Below are positions 61,756 through 64,000 of a DNA stretch of 64,000 nucleotides, in pieces. Below the pieces are notes generated by a model. It made no database searches and was not told where the DNA came from. It was given only the letters and a program-made list of their open reading frames with translations. Every line of letters begins with the position of its first letter. The first letter of the stretch is position 1. The stretch covers positions 124,001 through 188,000 of the forward strand of contig JAKVCX010000001.1 in assembly GCA_022448525.1 (NCBI GenBank), read 5' to 3'. A program made the position numbers and the translations under genes. This DNA is from Tenacibaculum sp. GTDB taxonomy: Bacteria > Bacteroidota > Bacteroidia > Flavobacteriales > Flavobacteriaceae.

Positions 61756-64000
61756 ATGAAAACTGAATATGATATTATTATCATTGGTGGTGGTGCCATG
61801 GGATTAGCAACTGCCGCAGAACTAGCGAATACCAAAAAGAACGTACTTGTTTTAGAGCAATTTGGATTTTTTAACGATAAAGGAAGTTCTGCAGGACTTT
61901 CTCGACAATTCAGAGTTCAATATGCACAGGAATATATGTCAGAACTTGCTTTAGAATCTATACCTTATTGGGAAAAACTTCAAAAAACAACTGACGAACA
62001 ACTTATTGATAAAGTAGGCTCATTATGGTTTGGAGATCCAAACATTAGTTCACAAGAAGGAGGAATTCAAGCTGCAATGGATGTTATGGACAAACTTCAT
62101 ATTCCATACACTCCACTTGATGCTAAACAAATTGAAGCTCAATATCCGTTTAAAGACTTACCAGAAGATTATAATGGATTCTTTCAAAAAGATGGTGGTA
62201 TTATTGATTTAAAAGCCACTTTAAAAGCTTTATTTAATATTGCAAATGATGCTGGAAATATAGATTTATTAGAGTTCACTCCTGTTACGAATATTCAATC
62301 ATTAAACACAGGAATCATCAATGTAGAAACTTCTGAACAACTTTACACGACAGAAAAATTAGTTATAACTCCAGGAGCATTTGTAAACGATATTCTAAAA
62401 CACTTTGGATTATCTGTAAATGTTGATATCTGGGAAATGTCTTCTGCCTATTATAAGAAAACAGAAGATATTACTTTACCAACTTGGTTTGTTTTCCAAG
62501 AACCTCAGAACACTAGTTTATTCTATGGTTTCCCGGAGGAGAACTGGGCAAATCCAGGATATCTTCGCGTGGCTCCAGATATTCCAGATCGTATACTAAA
62601 AGATCCGTCGGATAGAACTGGAATTCCTAGTGAAGAAAGTTTGGCTTTTAACTCTGCTTGGGTTCAAGATCATATGGTTGGTTTAGATAATACACCCGAA
62701 TTTACTTCTACGTGTTTAATTACATTGAACAATAACAATAAGGAATTAATGTTAGACACACTTCCTAATTGGGTTCACAATCATAAAAATATTATTGTTT
62801 ACACTGGAGGTTGGGCCGCTAAGTTTATTCCATTATTAGGAAAAATACTTTCTGATTTAGCAGTAAAAGGAAAGACTAAATTTGATATTTCTCACTTCAA
62901 AATTCAATGGCCAGTTGTTCGAGGTGAAATTAGCAATCGTTTTGTGACTAAAGAAGCTAAAAAACAGCAATTAGATGTCGCTATTATTGGTGCTGGTGCT
63001 TCGGGACTATATTCTGGATATAGGCTTTTAAACGGGACAAACAAGCAAAAGAATAAACTTAACTTAGATGTTGCCATATTTGAAATGAGTGATCGTATTG
63101 GAGGAAGATTAGAATCTGTAAAACTTCCAGGTATGAACGTTGTAGGAGAACTTGGAGGAATGCGTTATATGACAGAGCAAAAAATTGTAACTGCTTTAAT
63201 TGAAGATGTATTCTCAACTCAATATGGATTAAACCCAATCGACTTTCCAATGGGTGATGCGAATCATCATTTATATTATTTAAGAAAACAACGCTTCTTT
63301 GCTAATAGATTTTCTCAATCTCAAATAACTGGAGAGAAATTTAAGACTAGATATTTTGTTGAAGAACGATTTGATGGAATGAGTTCTGATGATATTTTCA
63401 CCGAAATTATTAGTGAAGTTTTAGAAGCTGATGGATATTCTTTAAAACAAATACAAGAAAACCCGAATCCAAGAGAAGAATGGAATCGAGTTAAACAAGA
63501 CTTAGTATATCAATTTGATGGACCTTATAAAGGAATTAAAGTTTATAAAATTGGATTCTGGAACTTATTAAAAGATCGATCTTCTCAGGAATGTTATGAA
63601 TTTTTAGCTCAGGCTGGAGGATACTATTCAAACACAATTAATTGGAATGCTGCAGAAGCTTTTCCTTATATGGTAGGAGATTTCGCAAGTGATTCTGTAA
63701 AATATAAAACAATAGAAGGTGGATATGATCAAATATTGACTTGTTTAGGAGATGACTTTATTCAACAAGGAGGTACAATTTATACAAGGAATAAACTTAA
63801 AACCTTCAGAAGAAATAAAGACAAATCAAGTGAATATAAATACATTCTAACTTTTTATAATTTAAACAAAGAAGAATATTATGAAGTAGAAGCTAAAGAC
63901 ATAATTTTAGGAATGCCTAAACGATCTTTAGAATTACTTGATCAAGATAACTTCTTCTTTAATCCAGAAAAAAATCATAAACTACATAACAACTTAAATT
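61756..64000 (+). CDS. two-domain FAD oxidase: sarcosine/N-methyl-amino-acid-oxidase-like N-half fused to L-amino-acid-oxidase-like C-half (3' truncated by window edge)
   Basis: Stop-free frame of 748 codons from ATG 61756; N-terminal DIIIIGGGAMGLATAAELA; second dinucleotide motif DVAIIGAGASGLYSGYRLL from about codon 407, followed by EMSDRIGGRLESV and GELGGMRYM. Absent from ORF track because no stop in window. Confidence 0.85.
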   Translation, partial: MKTEYDIIIIGGGAMGLATAAELANTKKNVLVLEQFGFFNDKGSSAGLSRQFRVQYAQEYMSELALESIPYWEKLQKTTDEQLIDKVGSLWFGDPNISSQEGGIQAAMDVMDKLHIPYTPLDAKQIEAQYPFKDLPEDYNGFFQKDGGIIDLKATLKALFNIANDAGNIDLLEFTPVTNIQSLNTGIINVETSEQLYTTEKLVITPGAFVNDILKHFGLSVNVDIWEMSSAYYKKTEDITLPTWFVFQEPQNTSLFYGFPEENWANPGYLRVAPDIPDRILKDPSDRTGIPSEESLAFNSAWVQDHMVGLDNTPEFTSTCLITLNNNNKELMLDTLPNWVHNHKNIIVYTGGWAAKFIPLLGKILSDLAVKGKTKFDISHFKIQWPVVRGEISNRFVTKEAKKQQLDVAIIGAGASGLYSGYRLLNGTNKQKNKLNLDVAIFEMSDRIGGRLESVKLPGMNVVGELGGMRYMTEQKIVTALIEDVFSTQYGLNPIDFPMGDANHHLYYLRKQRFFANRFSQSQITGEKFKTRYFVEERFDGMSSDDIFTEIISEVLEADGYSLKQIQENPNPREEWNRVKQDLVYQFDGPYKGIKVYKIGFWNLLKDRSSQECYEFLAQAGGYYSNTINWNAAEAFPYMVGDFASDSVKYKTIEGGYDQILTCLGDDFIQQGGTIYTRNKLKTFRRNKDKSSEYKYILTFYNLNKEEYYEVEAKDIILGMPKRSLELLDQDNFFFNPEKNHKLHNNLN

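What the first reader, a model, noticed from the sequence alone, without database searches (positions are those of the whole stretch)
61756..64000. Fused tandem flavoenzyme: MSOX-like oxidase joined to LAAO-like oxidase in one polypeptide
Seen in sequence: one uninterrupted frame carries two complete FAD dinucleotide-binding signatures about 400 codons apart (GGGAMGLA near codon 9; GAGASGLYSG near codon 411). The first half ends with STCLITLNNNNKELMLDTLPN...GGWAAKFIPLLGKILSDLA, which resembles the monomeric sarcosine oxidase / N-methyltryptophan oxidase region holding the covalent-FAD cysteine (here Cys320). The second half has GGRLESV and ELGGMRY; the Arg (R470) sits where LAAOs have the 'GxMR' carboxylate-binding arginine. 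Inference: a bifunctional enzyme could N-demethylate an N-methyl amino acid and then oxidatively deaminate it, producing two H2O2 per substrate, as catabolism or as an antagonistic peroxide generator. I do not recall a characterised protein of this exact architecture, but cannot exclude annotated homologues.
Basis: partly seen in the sequence, partly recalled or inferred. Interest (0 to 1): 0.72.

Follow-up and report, generated by a model that had tools for sequence, protein, structure and literature searches.

The report
Fused lysine-to-picolinate double flavoenzyme
A bacterium carries one long protein made of two joined flavin enzymes that, from their closest solved relatives and active sites, should act one after the other to turn the amino acid lysine into picolinic acid, a metal-binding antibiotic building block; the same two enzymes sit side by side as separate genes in many related bacteria and on some staphylococcal plasmids.

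Summary
The fused frame is real. It runs 626 bases past the window edge and encodes an intact 956-aa protein. The assignments change. The N half is closest to NikD (piperideine-2-carboxylate to picolinate oxidase; 299 bits), not MSOX (118 bits). The C half is closest to the L-lysine alpha-oxidase AncLLysO (605 bits). All catalytic residues tested are kept in both halves: NikD set R53/E101/Y257/D275/C320/W353/K356, lysine-oxidase set R470/G621-Y624/Y638/E753/K757/Y886/W924. In the known pathway the lysine-derived keto acid cyclises to exactly the NikD substrate, so the C half acts first and the N half second. Predicted net reaction: L-Lys + 3 O2 to picolinate + NH3 + 3 H2O2. Support: of 27 Bacteroidota NikD genes examined, 8 are fused to the lysine oxidase, 16 lie directly upstream of it, and 3 have its remnants downstream; two staphylococcal plasmids carry the pair too. 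Both halves evolve under strong purifying selection. The N-demethylation idea is not supported. Activity is inferred, not measured. I found no description of this fusion in the held papers. New variant of a known kind.

The parts
61756..64000 (+). Fused NikD-like / L-lysine alpha-oxidase gene (956 aa; continues to equivalent window position 64626, G000:C1:185756-188626)
61756..62925 (+). N half, aa 1-390: NikD-like piperideine-2-carboxylate oxidase domain (Pfam DAO)
   Evidence: PDB 2oln NikD E 4e-88, 299 bits; Pfam DAO aa 6-368
61786..61809 (+). FAD dinucleotide-binding motif GGGAMGLA (aa 11-18)
   Evidence: sequence
61912..61914 (+). Arg53 (= NikD R53)
62056..62058 (+). Glu101 (= NikD E101; Ser in MSOX)
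62578..62580 (+). Asp275 (= NikD D276)
62713..62715 (+). Cys320 (= NikD C321, MSOX C315: covalent FAD cysteine)
   Evidence: covalent attachment itself inferred
62812..62814 (+). Trp353 (= NikD W355; His in MSOX)
62821..62823 (+). Lys356 (= NikD K358, MSOX K348)
62926..62967 (+). Linker aa 391-404 (EISNRFVTKEAKKQ), faster-evolving than either half in most comparisons
62968..64000 (+). C half, aa 405-956 (cut by the window end at aa 748): L-lysine alpha-oxidase domain (Pfam Amino_oxidase)
   Evidence: PDB 7eih/7eii AncLLysO E 1e-180, 605 bits
62989..63018 (+). Second FAD motif GAGASGLYSG (aa 412-421)
   Evidence: sequence
63163..63165 (+). Arg470 (= AncLLysO R76, binds the substrate carboxylate)
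   Evidence: PMC8405998
63616..63627 (+). Plug loop Gly621-Gly-Tyr-Tyr624 (= AncLLysO 251-GGYY-254); E753, K757, Y886, A888, W924 lie past the window end
   Evidence: PMC8405998
61597..61619 (+). Terminator-like hairpin after the upstream gene, suggesting the fused gene is its own transcription unit
   Evidence: 10-bp stem followed by a T run; such sites also occur by chance

Best explanation
The protein is a one-chain picolinate synthase. Step 1 (C half): an FAD L-lysine alpha-oxidase converts L-lysine + O2 to 2-keto-6-aminocaproate + NH3 + H2O2. Step 2 (spontaneous): the keto acid closes to delta-1-piperideine-2-carboxylate (P2C). Step 3 (N half): a NikD-type oxidase with covalent FAD performs a four-electron oxidation of P2C to picolinate with 2 more H2O2. 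The fusion probably keeps the peroxide-sensitive, reactive keto acid/P2C near the second active site, or at least fixes a 1:1 ratio. Shown here: frame, homology, residues, co-occurrence, selection. Inferred: both activities, covalent flavin, order of steps, any hand-over between sites, and the fate and role of picolinate.
For: N half: best solved relative NikD, 299 bits against 118 for MSOX; all NikD residues checked are present, including two that differ from MSOX. C half: best solved relative the experimentally proven lysine alpha-oxidase AncLLysO, 605 bits, against 282-284 for the next group, which includes the arginine oxidase structure 8jt7; all 12 positions checked are identical to AncLLysO. 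The residue that reads the lysine side chain is Glu (E753), as in lysine oxidase, not Gln as in arginine oxidase. Published pathway: lysine 2-aminotransferase leads to P2C and NikD makes picolinate (PMC4021061; PMC9854754); an alpha-oxidase gives the same keto acid. Rosetta-stone evidence: 8 fusions, 18 unfused pairs in the same order and strand (gaps -11 to +109 nt, mostly 11-14), 3 decayed pairs. Most NikD relatives in Bacteroidota were sought with a NikD-only profile, yet the partner was always there or had been. Both halves under purifying selection. No leader peptide, so probably an internal biosynthetic enzyme (inference). An FMP-type peroxidase gene directly follows the pair in 8 loci, as expected if peroxide is a nuisance.
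Against: No activity measured. Identity to NikD is about 39%, so a related cyclic imine or a partial oxidation product cannot be excluded; a NikD/CrmD homologue is proposed to stop at a partly oxidised product in another pathway (PMC11446937). No picolinate-using gene (CoA ligase, NRPS) adjoins the window gene; neighbours are housekeeping. The window genome lacks the FMP peroxidase and a catalase over cut-off (KatG not searched). Structure prediction without an alignment failed (pLDDT 33), so the spacing of the two sites is unknown.
Confidence: 0.78

Rival explanations
1. One reading: an MSOX/MTOX-like N-demethylase joined to a general LAAO, acting on an N-methyl amino acid.
For: Same superfamily (Pfam DAO) and the shared covalent-FAD Cys/Lys.
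Against: NikD is a much better match than MSOX or MTOX; NikD-type Glu and Trp replace MSOX Ser and His; curated family cut-offs are missed; the C half is of the lysine type at all positions checked, so the two steps would not share a substrate.
Confidence: 0.04
2. Peroxide weapon: the purpose is H2O2 from lysine, as in antimicrobial amino-acid oxidases; the NikD half just adds two more H2O2.
For: Three H2O2 per lysine are expected; antimicrobial amino-acid oxidases are known in marine bacteria (PMC4699246, listed; PMC6316408, listed).
Against: No signal peptide on the fusion or on the NikD proteins, whereas the unpaired homologue in G191 has a lipoprotein-like N terminus. A bare lysine oxidase would suffice; a NikD partner is kept under strong selection. 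A peroxidase often follows the pair.
Confidence: 0.13
3. Same two-step logic, but the end product is not picolinate (for example a dihydropyridine or dehydropipecolate, or a hydroxylated lysine is the true substrate).
For: A NikD homologue is proposed to give a partly oxidised product (PMC11446937); lysine oxidases of this type also accept 5-hydroxylysine (PMC8405998); the long-fusion clade has Ala for NikD Asp276.
Against: The window clade keeps every NikD residue checked.
Confidence: 0.15
4. Lysine catabolism for nitrogen or carbon.
For: The first step releases NH3 (known chemistry of the family).
Against: Picolinate is a dead end unless further degraded; no degradation genes next to it; scattered distribution (10 of 148 genomes of the genus) is more like a specialised pathway.
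Confidence: 0.05

Closest known systems
NikD (nikkomycin biosynthesis, Streptomyces; PDB 2oln/2olo/2q6u/3hzl)
   Same: About 39% identity across the full length; R53, E101, Y258, D276, C321, W355, K358 counterparts all present
   Different: NikD is a separate protein, and in nikkomycin biosynthesis P2C comes from a lysine 2-aminotransferase; here it is joined to an oxidase that makes the same keto acid
AncLLysO / CaLLysO FAD L-lysine alpha-oxidase (PDB 7eih, 7eii, 7eij; Sugiura 2021, PMC8405998)
   Same: Full-length homology (605 bits) and all 12 active-site and plug-loop positions identical
   Different: Known as a stand-alone enzyme; that paper does not mention NikD, picolinate or operons and filtered out sequences over 5% longer, which would drop fusions
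[quoted passage not shown]
   Same: Superfamily fold and covalent-FAD cysteine
   Different: 118 and 90 bits; family cut-offs missed; Ser and His at NikD-diagnostic positions of MSOX
L-arginine oxidase PT-AROD (PDB 8jt7; PMC11694665)
   Same: Same LAAO subfamily
   Different: 282 bits; AROD has Gln350 and Glu493 where lysine oxidase and this protein have Glu and Ala (Ala888 read from the sequence)

Membership tests
NikD-type P2C oxidase | Closest to NikD rather than to MSOX/MTOX over the whole length | tested here: met
   299 vs 118 vs 90 bits, aa 3-384
NikD-type P2C oxidase | NikD active-site set incl. covalent-FAD Cys, Glu101, Asp276, Trp355, Lys358 | tested here: met
   R53, E101, Y257, D275, C320, W353, K356; the choice of residues rests partly on memory of the NikD structure papers, which are not held
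NikD-type P2C oxidase | Four-electron oxidation of P2C to picolinate; covalent cysteinyl FAD | not testable with these tools
   needs assay and mass spectrometry
FAD L-lysine alpha-oxidase (AncLLysO group) | R76, GGYY plug loop, Y268, E383, K387, Y516, Q552-W554 | tested here: met
   all identical in the window protein and in all 7 other fusions
FAD L-lysine alpha-oxidase (AncLLysO group) | Oxidation of L-lysine at the alpha carbon | not testable with these tools
   needs assay
Monomeric sarcosine oxidase / N-methyltryptophan oxidase | Curated family score (TIGR01377, NF008425) | tested here: not met
   180.2 vs 479.65 and 173.1 vs 257 bits
Monomeric sarcosine oxidase | Ser and His at the positions of NikD E101 and W355 | tested here: not met
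   Glu and Trp
L-arginine oxidase | Gln350 and Glu493 (PT-AROD) at the side-chain pocket | tested here: not met
   Glu753 and Ala888
VioA-type tryptophan oxidase | NCBIfam NF053546 cut-off | tested here: not met
   68.6 vs 600 bits

The most novel reading that the evidence does not exclude
The fused protein and the nikD-llysO pair define a transaminase-free, oxygen-driven lysine-to-picolinate pathway spread across Bacteroidota and onto staphylococcal plasmids. The in vivo role of the characterised AncLLysO-type lysine oxidases is to feed NikD, and in the fused form the labile P2C is passed between two flavin sites of one chain.
Probability: 0.5. Interest if true: 0.66.

Novelty: new variant of a known kind. 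Interest (0 to 1): 0.55.

Why it matters
It gives a concrete, testable function to a family of lysine oxidases whose natural role is not discussed in their main paper. It offers a one-gene route from lysine to picolinate, a chelator and antibiotic building block, without a transaminase. It also shows two successive flavin oxidases fused where the nikkomycin pathway uses an aminotransferase plus a separate oxidase.

Tried and rejected
The genome-contig scan with the NikD alignment picked the generic FAD motif and returned unrelated oxidoreductases. Promoter scan: sigma-70 matches not above chance. A search of Streptomyces for NikD neighbourhoods could not be centred there. Considered and rejected: MSOX/MTOX identity, arginine oxidase, VioA-type oxidase, chance join or sequencing error. 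One fusion event or two: C halves form one clade (100/99), N halves fall in two places, but one clade is not rejected (AU p 0.095), so left open. Paper searches for lysine oxidase + NikD or picolinate in Bacteroidota found nothing, but most subscription papers are not held.

Full report
WHAT IS THERE. The frame at 61756 is open to the window end. The genome contig shows it stops 626 bases further on, giving 956 aa. The upstream gene is a zinc-ribbon-type protein, followed by a terminator-like hairpin. Downstream lie a lipoprotein-like gene, folE, hisS and other housekeeping genes. The gene therefore looks like a single transcription unit (inference).

WHAT THE HALVES ARE. The N half matches NikD over its whole length with 299 bits, against 118 for monomeric sarcosine oxidase and 90 for N-methyltryptophan oxidase. 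The C half matches AncLLysO, a reconstructed but experimentally proven L-lysine alpha-oxidase, with 605 bits, against 282-284 for the next group, which includes an arginine oxidase. Residue by residue, the N half keeps NikD R53, E101, Y258, D276, C321, W355 and K358. MSOX has Ser and His at the E101 and W355 positions. The C half keeps all 12 positions checked, including R76, the GGYY plug loop, E383, K387 and W554; mutants at several of these sites lose or change activity (PMC8405998). Glu753 and Ala888 fit lysine rather than arginine oxidase.

WHY THE TWO BELONG TOGETHER. In nikkomycin biosynthesis a lysine 2-aminotransferase leads to piperideine-2-carboxylate (P2C) and NikD oxidises it to picolinate (PMC4021061). 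A lysine alpha-oxidase produces the same keto acid that closes to P2C. So the C half supplies the N half. Inference: because the keto acid is decarboxylated by H2O2 (5-aminopentanoate was the main product of AncLLysO without catalase, PMC8405998), keeping the second oxidase close should help yield.

COMPARATIVE EVIDENCE. A NikD-only profile and the whole protein were run through about 1600 genomes. 27 Bacteroidota NikD loci were collected and examined. Eight are fused: five in the window's genus with a 14-residue linker, and three longer ones (two in the genus, one in another genus) with linkers of 48-63 residues. Sixteen are unfused pairs, always NikD first, same strand, mostly 11-14 nt apart. 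Three 'orphan' NikD genes have broken lysine-oxidase remnants immediately downstream. Two staphylococcal plasmids carry the pair with 4-nt overlapping frames, behind a short-chain dehydrogenase gene. Only the actinobacterial Embleya NikD had no partner of this kind in its 21-kb stretch.

EVOLUTION. The five short fusions lie next to folE/hisS in all five genomes. dN/dS is 0.03-0.09 (N half) and 0.02-0.06 (C half), with the linker mostly faster, so neither half is decaying. C halves of all fusions form one clade (100/99); N halves fall in two places, but a single clade is not rejected (p 0.095). The number of fusion events stays open. In the long clade NikD Asp276 is Ala, so its product may differ.

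PEROXIDE. Eight loci have a gene directly downstream of the lysine oxidase, or of its relic, whose tested members are called 'peroxidase, FMP-type' by NCBIfam, far over cut-off. The window genome has no such gene and no catalase over cut-off; KatG was not searched.

LIMITS. No activity, flavin linkage or metabolite was measured. Organism names of the genomes are withheld; the family is probably Flavobacteriaceae (inference: the g149 lysine oxidases branch with AncLLysO, which was built from sequences of genera including Chryseobacterium, Flavobacterium and Pedobacter, PMC8405998). The choice of NikD residues rests partly on memory of papers that are not held. Absence of a description holds only for the papers available here.

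Noticed in passing
L092:7373-10903 (plasmid pWBG14, NZ_MH587576.1) and L093:639-4219 (Staphylococcus pasteuri plasmid NZ_CP067015.1): A three-gene cassette, short-chain dehydrogenase - NikD-like - lysine-oxidase-like, with 4-nt overlap of the last two frames, on staphylococcal plasmids. No role is annotated; the dehydrogenase may act on P2C.
   Followed up: partly
L086:9678-11207; L077:9884-10948; L084, L089, L082, L076, L088: An FMP-type peroxidase gene directly follows the nikD-llysO pair in many genomes. In G254, G878 and G904 a copy lies beside a more distant LAAO gene, so it seems to accompany FAD amino-acid oxidases in general.
   Followed up: partly
L075:7024-8351; L083:3427-4830; L088:7168-8774: Three NikD genes keep an intact frame while the lysine oxidase behind them is reduced to fragments; perhaps NikD gets its substrate elsewhere there, or the loss is recent.
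   Followed up: partly
L078, L079, L020 (long fusions): NikD Asp276 is Ala and the linker is longer; this clade may make a different product.
   Followed up: partly
L049:2345-9824: In G619 (another class of the phylum) the unfused pair lies about 4-6 kb from an AMP-binding enzyme and a luciferase-like monooxygenase on the other strand; a possible picolinate-using cluster.
   Followed up: partly
L021:7235-9205: A stand-alone lysine-oxidase homologue with a lipoprotein-like N terminus, i.e. probably exported, unlike the fused enzyme.
   Followed up: no
L051:17283-19000: A Cas9-like frame lies about 5 kb from the pair in G618.
   Followed up: no
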